Origin: Limisphaerales bacterium
GTDB taxonomy: Bacteria > Verrucomicrobiota > Verrucomicrobiia > Limisphaerales > BOG-1460
Length of the DNA: 35,809 bases
Direction of reading: 5' to 3'
NCBI GenBank assembly: GCA_003159675.1
Contig: PLQC01000019.1
Coordinates: 1 to 35,809, forward strand
Of this stretch, positions 25,751 through 35,323 are shown in pieces. Positions within the stretch are counted from its first letter, which is position 1. Each line of letters opens with the position of its first letter. Under the pieces are notes generated by a model, which searched no databases, was not told the origin of the DNA, and saw only the letters and a list, made by a program, of their open reading frames with translations. The position numbers and the translations under genes are program-made.

Positions 25751-26084
25751 AACTTGGTTCTAATCTACTCTAGCACCACCCCGCCCGGGTTGCCAGTTGA
25801 ATCCGCCCAATTCGCCAGTCACGGCATCACAGGTTCCGGCTTCAGCAGGAATTGGGAGTGATCCATCGCCGGGTTCAGGTCTCCCGGCAGTACATCGGGC
25901 ACCGCGCCATGGTGCTTGATTTTTCGACATGTCAAACAATCACGGGCCGCGCGGGCGTCCTGTTCCTAAACATAATATCCTGGAGATCGGAATCCCGAGG
26001 CGAAACCGCGTTGGCCTTCGTATTGCTTCTGAGTCCGGGCGTCGGAACGGGCCTGGAAACGGCCCTGTCCAAACGAGACAGAGC
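25751..26084. other. Intergenic region with a minus-strand coding remnant
   Basis: This 334-bp region separates the divergent Tyr/Gly-rich and receiver genes. Its left third should hold the promoter of the secreted-protein gene; no convincing -35/-10 pair was found. The stretch 25819-25965 is protein-like on the minus strand (see separate entry). On the plus strand an open frame from 25852 ends in an ATGA overlap with the receiver gene, but its translation does not look like a protein. Confidence 0.5.
25819..25965 (-). pseudogene. Possible C-terminal gene remnant, unknown family
   Basis: Reading the minus strand from 25965 to the stop at 25819 gives 48 residues that look like the end of a real protein: a CLTC pair, KIKHHGAVPDVLPGDLNP, then MDHSQFLLKPEPVMP and a stop. 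A TAG lies directly upstream (25966-25968) and no ATG fits, so it is either a decayed 3' end or a frameshifted gene. I do not recognise the family. Confidence 0.3.
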
Positions 26085-26534
26085 ATGACAAAACACGGGA
26101 CAGTATTACTGATCGAAGATGACGCAGGCGACGTGTTGCGCATCAAGAAGGCATTTGCCGATGCCGAACTGGTTTACCCGCTGACGACGGTCAATTCGTG
26201 CAAAGACGCGGTCGCCTATTTCAGCGGCGATGGCGTTTACGCAAACCGTGACTCGTTTCCGCTTCCATTTCTCGTGCTGCTGAATTTGAAACTGGCCCGT
26301 GAAGAGGGCTTCGCCGTGCTGCGATGGTTGTACGAACGCCCGGGTCTGCGGAAGAAATTCCCCGTGGTGGTCTGGAGCGCAGGCGACCCGGCGCAGGACA
26401 TCCAATTGGCCTATGAACTCGGCGCGCAATCCTGCCTCGTGAAGCCGATCGACCACCAACAGTTGCGCACCGTCGTTCAACGCGTGAAGGATTATTGGAT
26501 CGAGCTGAACCTGCTTCCGGGAGATCTCCTTTAG
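26085..26534 (+). CDS. Receiver-only response regulator lacking the phospho-Asp
   Basis: This 149-aa protein is a single CheY-like receiver domain of the Rcp1 type with no output domain. The acidic pocket is present (LLIEDDAGD, E11-D12-D13), as are the switch Ser (VVVWSAGD, S98) and the conserved Lys (CLVKPID, K120). The phospho-acceptor position, normally Asp in LLDLNLP, is Asn (VLLNLKLAREEG, N67; codon AAT). It therefore probably cannot be phosphorylated in the usual way and may act as a constitutive or ligand-controlled adaptor. I chose ATG 26085; an upstream in-frame ATG at 25929 adds 52 Arg/Gly/Pro-rich residues unlike a receiver. pdxH follows after 55 bp on the same strand. No histidine kinase is adjacent. 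Confidence 0.85.
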   Translation: MTKHGTVLLIEDDAGDVLRIKKAFADAELVYPLTTVNSCKDAVAYFSGDGVYANRDSFPLPFLVLLNLKLAREEGFAVLRWLYERPGLRKKFPVVVWSAGDPAQDIQLAYELGAQSCLVKPIDHQQLRTVVQRVKDYWIELNLLPGDLL

Positions 26535-27309: not shown

Positions 27310-28014
27310 TGAGGGATCCTCCTCATCGGCGACCCGGCGCCGCGCTCGAAACGCGGTCGCGCCGATGCGCGCCCTGGAATGAACCCACAGAGTGTCCCCG
27401 CGGTCCGGCCCGCGAGGCACCAAGGTTCCTCGGGCGACGAAAACCCGAGATTCCATCGATGCCAGAGCCCTTCGGGCACTTTGGTGCACCGAATCGAATG
27501 AGAACCAGATTTCCCGGGTTTTTGAATCATAAGTGTTTTATACATAATTAGTTATAACTGTAAATGGCGGCCAGGAAGGCTTCACACAAGCCAATGCCCG
27601 CGATCTGAAAATAATTTACTTTTCCTGCTTGCAAGCCGCCGCGGTGTGTGATGGAGTCGTTCGCGCGAGGTTTGCTGGCGTAACTCGTTGCACAGGATCG
27701 GCTCATACCTTGGGATCAAACGAATGCATGCAATTTGGAGCCAGGTGGAGTGCTGCCTGCGGAGTTTTTGAATTTGACCGCTCGTGGTGTATAGTCTATG
27801 AGCGTCAGCCTTCCGGTGTTTGCGGTCTTCAAACGCCTGTTGCAGATATGCCGAGCGTGACAACTGTCGATAGGGTTTGCGGTGATTGAATGCCGCAGAA
27901 ATTTCTGAACCAAAACGAATTGCGAGCGTCTGATTATTACTTATGCTGAATAGAAAAGGGAACAAAGCGCCGAATGACCGGTCCAAAGACCGGCGTCACG
28001 GCGGTGAGCAGAAG
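27310..28014. other. Long rpoD leader and intergenic region
   Basis: About 700 bp lie between pdxH and the preferred rpoD start. The first 210 bp are GC-rich, with a 6-bp hairpin (CTCGGG at 27429, CCCGAG at 27444) and a short GCCC/GGGC stem near 27468, but no T-run. An AT-rich stretch (27520-27565) follows. Promoter-like elements lie near 27768-27802. Open frames here, such as 27629-27889, have no protein-like character. Confidence 0.5.
27768..27802 (+). promoter_or_regulatory. Two overlapping sigma70-like promoters for rpoD
   Basis: TTGAAT (27768-27773), a 16-base spacer and TATAGT (27790-27795) make one candidate with a 5/6 -10 match. TTGACC (27774-27779), a 17-base spacer and TATGAG (27797-27802) make a second, shifted by seven bases. 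Either would give a leader of about 140-210 bases before rpoD. Confidence 0.5.
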
Positions 28015-29805
<1,791 letters not shown>

Positions 29806-30116: not shown

Positions 30117-32366
30117 TCAGGCTGGGCAGAATTCGATTGTGCCAGATTCGTGCCGCTCGGGGATGAACTCCTGCGCCGTCTTGAGTTTCTCGAGCCTGTG
30201 GCGCAGGGCAAACGTGAGTGCTTTGACGGTGATCTCAGCTTTGAGGAATGGTTTCGGGGTGATGTCGCTCGCACCGCACAGCGCGCATTGGCTGAGGAAC
30301 TTCGAGTCGGTGTAATTGGTGACCAGCACCACGGGCGTATGGCTGTTGGCTGTGGTCTTGTGAATCCTCGAGCAGGCCGTGAAACCATCCATGCCCGGCA
30401 TGAGCACGTCCAGGAAAATCACATCGTAGAATTGTTGTGCGGCCAGGACGAGCGCCGCCTCGCCGTTCTCCGCGAGGTCGGGTTTCTCGAAGGACATTTG
30501 CAGCGCGCCGGCGATTGCGCGGCGGGCGATGAGGTCGTCATCCACCACCAGGATGCGGATAGGCGGGTTGGCAACCCTGTCCATTTTAACCCCCTTCACG
30601 CACAAATCATTGAGCAACTCCACCGCAGCGGCGACGGTCTGAAGCGCGGCCCCGGTAAAATATCTGGGTCCCTCAAGGAGTTTCTTGAGCAGCCCTTCCA
30701 GAGCGGCACTCATTTGAAACACAGGACGCAGTCCGGCAAGATCGGCATTGAGCGTCAAAGAGTGGATGCGGAGGAACAGATTTCCCAACATTTCCAGCCG
30801 CACGTCCGCATCCGCATTTTGACTTATCTCCTGGATGAAATCCCGCAGCGCTCCAACCTGCGCAGGTGCGCGGGTGAAAAACGCCTCGGCATACGCGTTT
30901 GACTCCTGAAATGTATTTCGCGCCTGGACAGGTCTGTCGCCGGTGGGCGGGGCGGGCGACGCATCCCGCAGGCCGGAGACAACCAAACCAACGGGTTCCG
31001 GAAGTGACGATGGAAGCCCGTCCGAATCGACGGATCCCTTGGAAGCATCGGCGAGCGGGTCGTTTGCAAACAGCCGGCGGTGCAGGGCGAGCGTGAGTGC
31101 TTTTACAGTGATTTCAAAAGTGAGGAATGGTTTTGCGATGAGATCGTTCCCGCCGCAGAGGGTTGATTCGGCGCGCGCTTTGAAATCGCTCTGGCAGGTG
31201 ACAAACACCACCGGCGTGGCACCGTTGCACTCGGTGGCACGGATTTTTGAGCAGAGTTCAAAACCGTCCATACCCGGCATCTGCACATCCAGGAAAATCA
31301 CATCGTAGGGATGTTCCGAGGCCAGAACCAGCGCCGCCTCGCCATTCTCCGCGAGGTCGGGCTGATTGAACGCCCTCTTCACCGCGCAGGACACAGCATG
31401 CCGGCTGATGCGGTCGTCGTCCACCACAAGAAGCCGGAATGGAGGATTGGTCACAAGGTCCGAGTTCAATCCGTACACGCATAGTTCGTGGAGAAGATCC
31501 AGGCCGCTGCCGACGGTTCGCAGGGTGGATTGGGTGACGTCGCTGGCTTTGCCGGTGAGTTGTTTGACAAGCCCCTCCACGGCGCAGGCCATTTGCCACG
31601 CGGGGCGTAATTCCTGAAGGCCGGCCAGGCCTTTCAGATCACCGATGAGACGGCAGAGGTCGGCCAGAGCTTTTTGCCGGGCCGCCGTGCCTGATGCCCG
31701 GCAGATTTCCTCATGACACTTGTGCAACGCCACGAGCAGTTCTGGTGATCTGCCAAAGAATTCTTCGAGCGTATTGCATTCCGTCCTGCGCCCCGCATTG
31801 CCTGCCTCCCGCGGCACTGCGTGATCGGGGATGACGGTGGAGGAGCGGCGCGCAGGAGTCGGTCCAACCCGGAATGTCGCAAGAAACTCCGAAAAGGCTT
31901 CCTCCTCCGCGCGAACGTTCGACGCAAAGCCTTCCCCAGCCGGGCGTGAATACATCCAGGGGTTGAATTTCGTGTTGATGGAATCAAGGATTTGAGGGCC
32001 AAGTTTCCGGGCGGCCAGGATCCCGGCAAGGACACACACGGTGGCGAGCAAAAGATTCTGGAAGACCACTCCGGCAGGGGCACCCAAGTGCTGCGCTCCG
32101 GTCGTCTCTCTGGTCCGGGTGCCTGACTTGCGTGCAGGGGCGGATGCCACGGCACCTTCCCCGACGGCAGCAGGGATCGACACCCGTTTCCGGAAGCGTT
32201 CCTGTTCCGCTCTGGCTATCCGCTGATACATCTCCCGATCATGAGAAGTCGGCTCAGGCGGCGACCTTTCGAACTCGGAGGAATAGGGGTCAGGGGCTCC
32301 GCCTGTTTGGACGCAACAAAACACTGCCACGAGAACAAGGAATCGGAACAGGAACGCCGATCTCAT
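30117..32366 (-). CDS. Membrane-anchored tandem Hpt-like/receiver protein
   Basis: The 749-aa protein begins with a signal peptide (hydrophobic 5-20), a charged exported or linker part, and a membrane segment at about 104-119. Two copies of one module follow: an Hpt-like four-helix domain (about 198-302 and 490-595) and a CheY-type receiver (310-430 and 603-722). Both receivers are complete: DDD 316-318, D360 (VIFLDVQMPGMDG) and K412 in the first; DDD 609-611, D653 and K705 in the second. The Hpt signature HxLKGxA is split: copy 1 keeps LKG-x-A but has Gly (G242) at the His position; copy 2 keeps the His (H535, HSLTLNA) but not LKG. No kinase or output domain is present, so it may be a phosphate sink or scaffold. 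It lies 109 bp downstream of the prepilin-like genes on the same strand. Confidence 0.8.
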   Translation of the reverse strand: MRSAFLFRFLVLVAVFCCVQTGGAPDPYSSEFERSPPEPTSHDREMYQRIARAEQERFRKRVSIPAAVGEGAVASAPARKSGTRTRETTGAQHLGAPAGVVFQNLLLATVCVLAGILAARKLGPQILDSINTKFNPWMYSRPAGEGFASNVRAEEEAFSEFLATFRVGPTPARRSSTVIPDHAVPREAGNAGRRTECNTLEEFFGRSPELLVALHKCHEEICRASGTAARQKALADLCRLIGDLKGLAGLQELRPAWQMACAVEGLVKQLTGKASDVTQSTLRTVGSGLDLLHELCVYGLNSDLVTNPPFRLLVVDDDRISRHAVSCAVKRAFNQPDLAENGEAALVLASEHPYDVIFLDVQMPGMDGFELCSKIRATECNGATPVVFVTCQSDFKARAESTLCGGNDLIAKPFLTFEITVKALTLALHRRLFANDPLADASKGSVDSDGLPSSLPEPVGLVVSGLRDASPAPPTGDRPVQARNTFQESNAYAEAFFTRAPAQVGALRDFIQEISQNADADVRLEMLGNLFLRIHSLTLNADLAGLRPVFQMSAALEGLLKKLLEGPRYFTGAALQTVAAAVELLNDLCVKGVKMDRVANPPIRILVVDDDLIARRAIAGALQMSFEKPDLAENGEAALVLAAQQFYDVIFLDVLMPGMDGFTACSRIHKTTANSHTPVVLVTNYTDSKFLSQCALCGASDITPKPFLKAEITVKALTFALRHRLEKLKTAQEFIPERHESGTIEFCPA

Positions 32367-32475: not shown

Positions 32476-34212
32476 TCAGTTGACCGGAGGTGTTGTCTGG
32501 TTGGGAGCCACGGTGGCCCACTGACCGCGAATTACAGTCTCCAAACTGGGAGTCAGCGGAGGAAGCTTCGCGGGGTTGTTGAAGTTGACGTCAAAAGTCC
32601 AGTTACGCGCCGGGGGTGCGTAAACGTTCGCGTTGCCCCAGATATTGGTGGCATACTGGCTTGGAAACATCTTCACCATCGAACCGTTATAAGTGAAAGG
32701 GTTGGCCAGACCCCAGGTCTCAAGGAAACGAGGGAAGTTTTCCATTCCGCCGCCGTAATTGCCTCCGGCCGTGTCCACCGCACCGGCCAGGATGGCGGCG
32801 TTCACCGTGGTCGGAGTTGCATTGCGCGAGGCCACGGCGGCCTGGCTGTTTGCATCGGTCCAGTTCGCGGATAAAATCGTGACTGCATCGGCCACCAGCG
32901 ATGCGGGCAGTGTGGTCGTGGTGTTCGAGGTGCCCAGGTTCGCCGCGTTGGTCTGGTTGTAGTTTCCAAAGACGTAGAGTGGACTCGCGGTGGCGACCGT
33001 GAGTCCGCGCGGAGGCAGTTGCAGGCCGTTGAACACGCGAACGGCTCCGAGGTCGGTCCCCGTCAACGTCCGCTTATCCAAGACATAAATCGAGGACACA
33101 TCGAGCCCCCCCAGGGCGGTGCGCTCACTGGAATTGGTGGCGCTCCAGGCCGTGAGGCCGGCGATATTGATATCGATCGGCCGGATCGTCTTGCCCTCAC
33201 GCGCGTCGAAGAAGCTGTTTGTGGTTGAGACAAAGCCGTTCAACTGGTCAGCGGGGATGACGGTTGCGAAAGAGTTGAAGTCGCCGCTGGTCCCGCTGAT
33301 TCCGCTGCTGGAGACCACCAGCACCACATCGGACAGGTTATAATAACGTTCCCGACCCAGCGGCGAGTTGGGGTCTTCGAACGGCGGTGGGGGCTCGATG
33401 ATTTCCCGGACTGCGGTCGGGGTATTGGTGATGCCGATTGGAAGGCTCAACGCAGGCTGGTTGGGATCATGCACCCCATCGTAGGCCACCGAACCGGCGG
33501 GAGGCCCGCGACTGTCGAGCGGGCTGCGCTGAAACAGGATGTCGCCCACGGCAGTAACGGAGGATTCAAAGATCATAACGTTGTCCGGCTCGACATAGAG
33601 CTGACCGTTGGAATGGACCAGGCCGGTGATGGCGAAGGGTTGGCCGCAACTGATTTCCATGTCTCCCGTGGTGTACATGGCGAACTGGAATATCGGGATG
33701 CGGGTCAACTCCAGTTGCTGGAGCACTCCCCCGACGACGTCCTGGGCTGCGGAAGTCTGCCGGGCGTCGGAAACGATCGTGTAGAAGGAGGCGTAAGCAT
33801 TCAAGCCGGCGTAGCTGGAATTCTGGAGGATGAAATTGCTCGAGACGCCGGGTTGGACATAGGTCTGGCCGGTGTTTCCGCTGGCATCGTTGAACTCCCA
33901 ATCGGCCCAATAGGAAGAGTCCGACGCAAGGAGCGTCGTCTGGCGGTATGCGGTCAGATTGGCATTGACCAGGCCCTCGCCGCCGCTCAGAAAATCCCTT
34001 GAGATCATGGTGATTACTTTCTCGGTGTCGCCTTCGGCGGCGGCCACCGCACGGTAGTACTGATTCGACCGATAGTTGAGTCGTGCATTATTGGCCGAGT
34101 AGCTCAGAACACCGGCCACCGTGGCCAGGGCAATGCTGGTCATGATCATCGTCAGCGCCAGGGCGCTGCCGCACCGGCCACGCTTTTGAGTTGGGAGAAG
34201 AGTCGTCATCAT
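32476..34212 (-). CDS. PilX-like pilus assembly/secretion protein with long tail
   Basis: The 578-aa protein opens with a short basic segment and one hydrophobic helix (SALALTMIMTSIALATVAGVLSYSANNARLNYRSN). YYRAVAAAEGDTEKVITMISRDFL follows, the usual opening of PilX-like minor pilin or assembly proteins that lack the G/A-FTLVE prepilin site. The remainder is a long exported Asn/Thr/Ser/Gly-rich region, probably beta-rich, with a segment describing directional text such as FAITGLVHSNGQLYVEPDN typical of this group in Verrucomicrobia. It starts two bases after the PilW-like stop, so it is the third gene of a tight operon. Its exact role (minor pilus tip component or pseudopilus cargo) cannot be told. 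Confidence 0.65.
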   Translation of the reverse strand: MMTTLLPTQKRGRCGSALALTMIMTSIALATVAGVLSYSANNARLNYRSNQYYRAVAAAEGDTEKVITMISRDFLSGGEGLVNANLTAYRQTTLLASDSSYWADWEFNDASGNTGQTYVQPGVSSNFILQNSSYAGLNAYASFYTIVSDARQTSAAQDVVGGVLQQLELTRIPIFQFAMYTTGDMEISCGQPFAITGLVHSNGQLYVEPDNVMIFESSVTAVGDILFQRSPLDSRGPPAGSVAYDGVHDPNQPALSLPIGITNTPTAVREIIEPPPPFEDPNSPLGRERYYNLSDVVLVVSSSGISGTSGDFNSFATVIPADQLNGFVSTTNSFFDAREGKTIRPIDINIAGLTAWSATNSSERTALGGLDVSSIYVLDKRTLTGTDLGAVRVFNGLQLPPRGLTVATASPLYVFGNYNQTNAANLGTSNTTTTLPASLVADAVTILSANWTDANSQAAVASRNATPTTVNAAILAGAVDTAGGNYGGGMENFPRFLETWGLANPFTYNGSMVKMFPSQYATNIWGNANVYAPPARNWTFDVNFNNPAKLPPLTPSLETVIRGQWATVAPNQTTPPVN

Positions 34213-34214
34213 CG

Positions 34215-34823
34215 TTATAGAGCACGCCGGGTCACCGAAGTTTCAAGCTTGTAGTAATCGGGAACCGGGAGCAGGGGTTGTGGCTGATAGAATTCGAGGG
34301 TCAGGTGGATCACGCGGTTGTTCTGGCTGTTGGTCAGCACATTGCCCAGATAGTCCTGAGCGCGAAAGACCATCGTGTTGGTGACCGTCTGCGCAATAAT
34401 CGCGGTGGTTCCCGGTGTGCTCGTGGTGCGCCGGAAGCTGTTGTCGATGGGGTCGACAAAATAGACGATGAAGTTTGCGGCATTTGTCGTCGGCTGGATC
34501 AACAAACCGCTGCCTGTCTGCGATACTCCATCGAGCAGCGCTGTGAATTCGCCATTCGTCGAAACGTTGCCGATCCAGACGCTGGTGCAGGTCCGGATTT
34601 CATCAGTGATTTTCCCGAGGGCGTTGCGGGCGCCGTCGCTGGCGTTGAGCTTGGTTTCGACTGTCTTCTCCATCTTCAAGCCGAACACATGGGCGGTGAG
34701 GATTCCGGCCACCAGGAGGAGGAACACCGACACCGCGACGAGGAGTTCCGCCAAGGTGAACGCGGCAGTCGACTTTGTCGGGGTGCTCTGGCGTGAGCCT
34801 GGAAAACGAAGATGCACTTTCAT
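34215..34823 (-). CDS. PilW-like prepilin
   Basis: This 202-aa protein has a type IV prepilin N-terminus: a basic leader of 21 residues ending in Ala, then FTLAELLVAVSVFLLLVAGILTAHV with the conserved Glu at +5 of the mature chain. The cleavage residue is Ala rather than the usual Gly (AAFTLAE). The soluble part (EKTVETKLNASDGARNALGKITDEIRTCTSVWIG) is like PilW/PulJ minor pilins. Its ATG overlaps the stop of the preceding PilV-like gene (ATGA), indicating translational coupling. The prepilin peptidase needed to process it is outside the window. Confidence 0.8.
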   Translation of the reverse strand: MKVHLRFPGSRQSTPTKSTAAFTLAELLVAVSVFLLLVAGILTAHVFGLKMEKTVETKLNASDGARNALGKITDEIRTCTSVWIGNVSTNGEFTALLDGVSQTGSGLLIQPTTNAANFIVYFVDPIDNSFRRTTSTPGTTAIIAQTVTNTMVFRAQDYLGNVLTNSQNNRVIHLTLEFYQPQPLLPVPDYYKLETSVTRRAL

Positions 34824-35287
34824 TGGTCAGGAGCGCGGCAAGTCTCGATCGTGTTGGTAAATAGCTGAGAACCCTTGAAGCTCCAGATGCAGTCCACGCG
34901 AACGCGCCTTAGGGGCGGGTTGGCGGAGATTTGTGAGATCTGAGTGATATTGGTGGCATAGACGATCCCCGAACCCGAACCGGAATGGTCCAACACGACG
35001 ACTTCATTTGGAAAATTCGTGACTACGAGATCATCGACGTTCGGCCAACTCGCCGTATCCCATGTGGCACTGCGTATTTCCTCGATGCGGGCCATCGCCT
35101 CGGCGTTGGCCGCAAGCGATAGAGCCCATTTCTGCGCGGAAGTTATGCTGAAGATGTACCCCGAGACAATGCCTGCCACCGCCATGGTGGCGAGGGCCAA
35201 TGCCACGACCACCTCCACCAGCGTCATCCCGGCCTGAATACGCAGTGGCAGCGACCCACACGTCTGCTTTAAATATCTCATTTCCAT
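34820..35287 (-). CDS. PilV-like prepilin
   Basis: This 155-aa protein is the first gene of the prepilin-like operon. A basic leader is followed by QAGMTLVEVVVALALATMAVAGIVSGYIF, the classical prepilin cleavage site after Gly with Met at +1 and Glu at +5. The globular part (KWALSLAANAEAMARIEEIRSATWD) resembles PilV/GspI-type minor pilins that help prime pilus assembly. I use ATG 35287, which has GGAAG six bases upstream; ATGs at 35281 and 35323 are alternatives. The stop overlaps the PilW-like start by four bases. Upstream lies a 0.5-kb leader with inverted repeats. Confidence 0.8.
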   Translation of the reverse strand: MEMRYLKQTCGSLPLRIQAGMTLVEVVVALALATMAVAGIVSGYIFSITSAQKWALSLAANAEAMARIEEIRSATWDTASWPNVDDLVVTNFPNEVVVLDHSGSGSGIVYATNITQISQISANPPLRRVRVDCIWSFKGSQLFTNTIETCRAPDQ

Positions 35288-35323
35288 TTGATTCTTCCGC
35301 TTCTGGTGGACTGGGAAGAGCAA

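What the first reader, a model, noticed from the sequence alone, without database searches (positions are those of the whole stretch)
30117..32366. Membrane-anchored protein with a duplicated Hpt-like/receiver module and no kinase
Two Hpt-like plus REC units are repeated inside one gene behind a signal peptide and membrane helix. The receivers are complete (D360, D653), while each Hpt-like domain keeps a different half of the HxLKGxA signature (G242-D-L-K-G in copy 1; H535-S-L-T-L-N-A in copy 2). The DNA also shows the duplication: about 33 of 36 bases agree between the stretch near 30463-30500 and that near 31335-31370. The lack of a kinase or output domain suggests a phosphate sink, scaffold, or a partner of an unseen kinase.
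Basis: partly seen in the sequence, partly recalled or inferred. Interest (0 to 1): 0.65.

Follow-up and report, generated by a model that had tools for sequence, protein, structure and literature searches.

The report
Membrane-anchored double Hpt–receiver pseudopilin-operon protein
This gene encodes a membrane-tethered signalling protein with two working receiver switches and two worn-down phosphotransfer modules but no kinase; it belongs to a small, apparently unnamed family whose gene sits last in operons for pilus-like secretion parts, so it probably connects kinases encoded elsewhere to that surface machinery.

Summary
The 749-aa protein (minus strand) has an N-terminal hydrophobic segment, a membrane helix, and two tandem Hpt-like + receiver units, 48% identical over 248 aa. 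No kinase or DNA-binding domain was found.

Homologues add three facts. (1) It is a family: 22 anchored loci in 18 genomes of the same order were examined, 18 with two units and 4 with one. Unit 1 and unit 2 form separate clades, so the duplication happened once, before the family spread. Unit 1 has lost the phospho-His (1 of 18) but keeps Leu-Lys/Arg. Unit 2 mostly keeps His (12 of 18) but never the Lys. Receiver sites are kept in 35 of 36 units. (3) The gene is the last of an operon (prepilin, prepilin, HpsA-C-terminus-like or PilX-like protein, then this protein) at 15 of the 16 loci whose upstream DNA I examined.

The sister family is a soluble REC-Hpt-REC protein, next to a hybrid kinase at every locus where I read the neighbour. 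Best reading: a membrane-bound dual-receiver module, phosphorylated in trans, acting on a pseudopilin/type IV pilus-like apparatus. Architecture and linkage are shown; phosphorylation and pilus control are inferred. No existing family name was found.

The parts
30117..32366 (-). Whole gene, 749 aa (P0001): N-terminal hydrophobic segment, periplasmic segment, TM, pseudo-Hpt1, REC1, linker, Hpt-like 2, REC2
   Evidence: ORF and translation; Pfam; self-comparison; family alignment
32292..32366 (-). Signal-peptide-like N-terminus (residues 1-25, then PDPY)
   Evidence: hydropathy; [A/S]DPY-type motif after it in several relatives; no SignalP-type predictor run
32070..32291 (-). Predicted periplasmic segment (residues 26-99) with (R)QExxRxRxxI-type motif shared by a subset of relatives
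   Evidence: alignment; location inferred from hydropathy
32007..32069 (-). Transmembrane helix (residues about 100-120), followed by positively charged ARK: N-out/C-in
   Evidence: hydropathy (mean 2.26); a second hydrophobic segment near the same place in most anchored relatives, absent from soluble relatives
31449..31781 (-). Hpt-like domain 1 (residues 196-306), pseudo-Hpt without phospho-His
31641..31643 (-). Codon of G242, the position of the phospho-His in Hpt domains (His in 1 of 18 unit-1 domains)
31071..31436 (-). Receiver domain 1 (residues 311-432), complete
   Evidence: Pfam; DD/D/T/K sites
31287..31289 (-). Codon of D360, phospho-acceptor of REC1 (18 of 18)
30570..30902 (-). Hpt-like domain 2 (residues 489-599), keeps His535 but not the Lys
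30762..30764 (-). Codon of H535 (His in 12 of 18 unit-2 domains; Asn in 5, Gln in 1)
30189..30557 (-). Receiver domain 2 (residues 604-726), complete
   Evidence: Pfam
30408..30410 (-). Codon of D653, phospho-acceptor of REC2 (17 of 18)
32476..34212 (-). Operon gene 3 (P0003, 578 aa): PilX-like N-terminus, HpsA-like C-terminal stretch
   Evidence: NCBIfam NF038301 HpsA E 9.1e-13, 46.8 bits, below its cut-off of 400; syntenic homologues
34215..34823 (-). Operon gene 2 (P0004, 202 aa): prepilin-type protein
   Evidence: N_methyl E 0.0019; weak ComGE, Verru_Chthon C and HpsC matches
34820..35323 (-). Operon gene 1 (P0005, 167 aa): prepilin-type protein, GspI/PilV-like
   Evidence: N_methyl E 1.9e-4, over cut-off; TIGR02532 over cut-off

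Best explanation
The gene encodes an inner-membrane-tethered dual-receiver protein that forms part of a prepilin/HpsA-like operon. The protein crosses the membrane once, with a short periplasmic segment and a cytoplasmic tail of two Hpt-REC units [predicted]. A kinase encoded elsewhere (a hybrid kinase with its own Hpt, or the CheA) phosphorylates D360 and/or D653 [inferred]. The first Hpt bundle has lost its phospho-histidine and serves as a spacer or docking/dimerisation helix bundle; the second may still pass phosphate through H535 in lineages that keep it [inferred]. Phosphorylation changes how the tail engages the pseudopilin/type IV pilus-like machine whose subunits are made from the same operon, turning assembly or export up or down [inferred]. 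It evolved from a Hpt-REC module shared with a soluble REC-Hpt-REC kinase partner, by gaining a membrane anchor and one internal duplication [topology shown by the tree; direction inferred].
For: Receiver sites (DD, D, T/S, K) are kept in all 18 unit-1 and 17 of 18 unit-2 receivers, while the Hpt His is kept in 1 of 18 and 12 of 18. Receivers are also far better conserved than the Hpt parts (63% against 42% in unit 1, 54% against 33% in unit 2). Unit 2 is one clade (97/96), unit 1 plus single-unit proteins another (99/98), and soluble REC-Hpt-REC a third (100/100): a single duplication. The operon order prepilin, prepilin, PilX/HpsA-like, anchored protein is seen at 15 loci in 14 genomes (window, G022, G106, G108, G132, G130, G212, G227, G247, G219, G105, G264, G102 at two loci, G217), and third-gene homology was checked. 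The closest P0003 homologues (58-69% identical) are mostly those lying beside this gene. The gene-3 proteins match the HpsA C-terminus (E 9e-13 to 4e-22). [quoted passage not shown] The soluble sister lies beside hybrid kinases, and in the window's own genome one soluble copy heads a second prepilin-prepilin-HpsA-like cluster with a PilM-like gene. The genome has kinases that could donate phosphate (hybrid kinases on C47 and C52, CheA on C52) and PilB/PilT-family ATPases.
Against: No kinase of this operon is known, and neither phosphorylation nor any effect on pili is shown. Upstream neighbours suggest co-transcription, but in the window a 109-bp gap precedes this gene. Some members lose a site (P0002 REC2 is degenerate; G217's single receiver has lost its Asp), so no site is essential in every lineage. 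G266 has an anchored single-unit protein without the prepilin genes directly upstream.
Confidence: 0.45

Rival explanations
1. Phosphorelay shuttle: phosphate goes REC1 -> H535 -> REC2 (or the reverse) inside one membrane-bound protein, ending on an unseen partner.
For: His535 with Leu at +2 is kept in most unit-2 domains (His in 12 of 18); the soluble sister keeps H-x-L-T-G-x-A in most members, matches PF01627 in 14 of 14 (best E 2.8e-10) and lies beside hybrid kinases.
Against: The His is Asn or Gln in 6 of 18 unit-2 domains with intact receivers; the Hpt Lys/Gly is gone in all unit-2 domains except one Arg.
Confidence: 0.2
2. Phosphate sink: the two receivers drain phosphate from a kinase or CheA and have no output of their own.
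For: Complete receivers with no output domain; CheY-like domains in CheA proteins are reported sinks (PMC10542144).
Against: A sink does not need a membrane anchor, a conserved pseudo-Hpt or a fixed place in a pseudopilin operon.
Confidence: 0.15
3. Structural scaffold or assembly factor of the pseudopilin apparatus; the receivers are used mainly as binding domains and phosphorylation is secondary.
For: Pseudo-Hpt bundle, membrane anchor, shared periplasmic motif in a subset, recurring operon place, tolerance of receiver loss in P0002 and G217.
Against: Nearly universal retention of the active-site set (DD/D/T/K) in 35 of 36 receivers of two-unit proteins points to phosphorylation.
Confidence: 0.15
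4. Ordinary REC/Hpt paralogue whose operon place is incidental and which serves a general relay.
For: The genome has many REC/Hpt proteins.
Against: The same four-gene order recurs in 14 genomes from several GTDB families.
Confidence: 0.05

Closest known systems
Soluble REC-Hpt-REC proteins of the same order (no family name found; P0006, P0007, P0008 and relatives in L003-L023)
   Same: Homologous about 240-aa Hpt-REC unit found as one continuous profile match; Hpt parts match profile-to-profile at E 9e-32
   Different: They begin with a receiver instead of a membrane anchor, have one Hpt-REC unit, mostly keep the Hpt His, and are encoded next to a hybrid kinase at the loci where the neighbour was read
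CheA P1 (Hpt) domain, and multi-Hpt ChpA of the Pil-Chp system
   Same: Same Hpt fold (1tqg); multiple Hpt copies, some without His, together with a receiver and type IV pili; in ChpA, Hpt domains lacking His are not phosphorylated in vitro (PMC10542144, PMC12632253)
   Different: No kinase core, no CheW domain, membrane-anchored, alternating Hpt-REC-Hpt-REC order
hps operon (hpsA-D) of filamentous cyanobacteria
   Same: Pseudopilin genes with an HpsA-like gene; P0003 and relatives match the HpsA C-terminal part
   Different: P0003 is 578 aa and far below the HpsA cut-off (46.8 of 400 bits); the signalling protein is not part of the hps genes as described in the paper read (PMC6495340)
Verru_Chthon cassette pseudopilins B and C (TIGR02598, TIGR02599)
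   Same: Weak N-terminal matches of the prepilin genes
   Different: Below the family cut-offs; similarity is mainly the prepilin leader

Membership tests
Receiver domain (PF00072) | Family profile above cut-off with Asp, acidic pair, T/S and Lys | tested here: met
   151 bits over two stretches; sites D316/D317, D360, T390, K412 and the matching copy-2 sites
Hpt domain (PF01627) | Profile score above gathering cut-off | tested here: not met
   12.5 bits against 24.6 for copy 2, no match for copy 1
Hpt domain (PF01627) | Phospho-histidine, copy 1 | tested here: not met
   G242; His in 1 of 18 relatives
Hpt domain (PF01627) | Phospho-histidine, copy 2 | tested here: met
   H535; His in 12 of 18 relatives
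Hpt domain (PF01627) | Four-helix-bundle fold homologous to known Hpt | tested here: met
   Family profile to CheA P1 1tqg E 4.7e-8; low-confidence model has four helices and superposes on CheA P1, no Foldseek hit below E 0.001
Soluble REC-Hpt-REC family | N-terminal receiver, soluble, one Hpt-REC unit | tested here: not met
   Signal-like segment and TM instead, two units, separate clade
Hybrid histidine kinase / CheA | HATPase_c kinase core | tested here: not met
   No such match at E up to 10
HpsA (NF038301), for operon gene 3 | Score above equivalog cut-off of 400 bits | tested here: not met
   46.8 bits, C-terminal stretch only
Prepilin-like proteins (TIGR02532/PF07963), operon genes 1 and 2 | Prepilin leader above cut-off | tested here: met
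   P0005 21.3 against 21.2 and 16.5 against 16.3; P0004 slightly below cut-off (18.1 against 21.2); homologues in L036 and L097 mostly above
Any named family with this whole architecture | A full-length named model or a described protein | tested here: inconclusive
   None found in Pfam, NCBIfam or PHROGs; three literature searches found no description; InterPro, CDD and subscription papers not available

The most novel reading that the evidence does not exclude
A lineage-specific class of membrane-bound, kinase-less double-receiver proteins (pseudo-Hpt/REC/Hpt/REC) is an operon-encoded control subunit of an HpsA/pseudopilin export or motility machine. It would connect phosphorelay kinases directly to the machine at the membrane rather than through soluble CheY-like regulators. 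The internal duplication would have split the Hpt signature so that one bundle is purely structural and the other an optional relay.
Probability: 0.35. Interest if true: 0.7.

Novelty: new variant of a known kind. Interest (0 to 1): 0.5.

Why it matters
If right, it is a direct, operon-encoded link between two-component signalling and a pseudopilin/HpsA-like export machine in a little-studied bacterial order, and a clear natural case of an internal domain duplication followed by unequal loss of phosphotransfer sites. It also bears on why so many pilus-linked Hpt domains lack their histidine, a question left open for ChpA.

Tried and rejected
Structure prediction of the full protein from one sequence failed (mean pLDDT 37.7) and was not used. 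The two-row unit model (mean pLDDT 48.5) is weak: only its four-helix part (about 56-77) was used, and its receiver part did not fold well. Hhalign of the anchored Hpt profile against the order's hybrid-kinase Hpt domains gave nothing (probability 0.5), and the soluble ones only weak support (63.9); CheA P1 is the closer relative. A Pfam PDE8A_N match overlaps a receiver and was set aside. Genome contigs gave only two distant Shewanella receiver proteins. The idea of a kinase gene beside the anchored protein was tested on ten neighbouring ORFs in nine loci and found none. A pure frameshift or assembly artefact is rejected: the two-unit architecture recurs in 15 genomes. The host could not be named; a DUF1549-type neighbour in one relative (recognised from memory) and the weak Verru_Chthon matches suggest the Planctomycetes-Verrucomicrobia group, untested.

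Full report
What is there. The finding lies on the minus strand: one ORF, 32366 to 30117, 749 aa. Two complete receivers are found by Pfam (E 1.5e-44), no kinase or DNA-binding domain, and only a sub-threshold Hpt match on copy 2. The two Hpt-REC units are 48% identical over 248 aa (E 3e-68). At DNA level they are 60% identical over 729 nt at offset 879, against 26% on average elsewhere. Hydropathy shows an N-terminal hydrophobic segment and one membrane helix near residues 100-120 followed by ARK, so the Hpt-REC tail should be cytoplasmic (prediction).

Are the Hpt-like regions Hpt? Yes by descent. Corresponding regions of the soluble relatives match PF01627 in 14 of 14 (best 2.8e-10). The anchored and soluble Hpt profiles match at E 9e-32. 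A profile of the anchored domains matches T. maritima CheA P1 over the whole domain at E 4.7e-8. A weak two-sequence model of copy 2 has four helices that superpose on CheA P1 (1tqg TM 0.76 by target, rmsd 2.7). No Foldseek hit reached E 0.001, so this is support and not proof.

It is a family. A profile of the protein and its G022 orthologue was run on 320 genomes of the same order. It found anchored homologues in 17 genomes at E <= 1e-70, plus three genomes with only the soluble form; an eighteenth (G217) was found through its operon. I examined 22 anchored loci: 18 with two units, four with one. In a sample of 384 genomes of the class, hits in other orders at E <= 1e-40 cover only one Hpt-REC unit of the model. 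So the two-unit anchored form was seen only in this order; other classes and phyla were not searched.

One duplication, then division of labour. In a tree of 56 Hpt-REC units, unit 2 forms one clade (97/96), unit 1 with the single-unit proteins another (99/98), and the soluble proteins a third (100/100). The duplication therefore came once, before the family spread, and single-unit proteins lost unit 2. Site counts: phospho-His in 1/18 unit-1 and 12/18 unit-2 domains; Lys at +3 in 13/18 unit-1 (Arg in 4) and 0/18 unit-2; soluble 12/16 His but 0/16 Lys (Thr in 13). Receiver Asp in 18/18 and 17/18. Exceptions run both ways: G022 keeps both His but its second receiver is dead; G217's only receiver has lost its Asp.

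Operon. In the window the gene follows P0005 (prepilin-type), P0004 (prepilin-type) and P0003, all on the same strand. The same order is found at 15 loci in 14 genomes; the gene order there was read from ORF positions, the third gene's homology was checked, and the prepilin leader was checked by profile only in the window, G022 and G106. G266 is the one locus with examined upstream DNA that lacks it; the remaining loci are cut by contig ends or their upstream DNA was not examined. The third gene comes in two sizes: about 580 aa (P0003 type) and about 430-485 aa, sharing a PilX-like N-terminus. P0003-type proteins match the C-terminal part of HpsA (E 9e-13 to 4e-22, well below the HpsA cut-off). 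[quoted passage not shown] The window's genome carries a second such cluster, headed by a soluble REC-Hpt-REC protein and followed by a PilM-like gene (PilM-like by eye, not by profile), and has several PilB/PilT-family ATPases.

Kinase. None of ten neighbouring ORFs tested around nine anchored loci is a kinase. By contrast the soluble sister genes lie beside hybrid kinases at the loci where I read the neighbour, including the window's own genome (C47: REC-HisKA-HATPase-REC-REC-Hpt). The genome also has a CheA and another hybrid kinase on C52. These are candidate phosphodonors; which one acts is unknown.

Mechanism. I favour a membrane-tethered, kinase-less dual-receiver module of the pseudopilin/HpsA-like apparatus, phosphorylated in trans. 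Shown: architecture, duplication history, site conservation, gene linkage. Inferred: topology, phosphorylation, direction of control. The nearest precedent for His-less Hpt domains beside receivers in pilus control is ChpA, in which Hpt domains without the His are not phosphorylated in vitro and their role is open (PMC10542144, PMC12632253).

Novelty. Every part is of a known kind, but no named family with this architecture was found in Pfam, NCBIfam or PHROGs, nor a description in the open literature searched. I call it a new variant of a known kind.

Noticed in passing
L035 (G000:C141:12000-22000): A second prepilin-prepilin-HpsA-like cluster in the same genome, preceded by a soluble REC-Hpt-REC protein (P0006, 584 aa, Hpt His replaced by Arg) and followed by a PilM-like gene.
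   Followed up: partly
window 25929-26534 (+): Small stand-alone receiver protein (201 aa, Response_reg E 9.6e-10) between a 379-aa protein without Pfam match and a PNPOx-like oxidase.
   Followed up: no
L105 5101-7782 (-): Anchored homologue with a long predicted extracytoplasmic N-terminus containing CxxCxGxG-like repeats reminiscent of DnaJ zinc fingers.
   Followed up: no
L102 4061-6883 (-): Anchored homologue (941 aa) with a predicted extracytoplasmic extension of about 250 aa before the membrane helix.
   Followed up: no
L159 (G000:C52:33000-45568): Chemosensory cluster: MCP, two CheW, CheA with C-terminal receiver, then a hybrid kinase ending in Hpt; possible phosphodonors.
   Followed up: partly
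window 27943-29805 (+): RpoD-like sigma factor gene convergent with the gene of the finding, ending about 310 bp from it.
   Followed up: no
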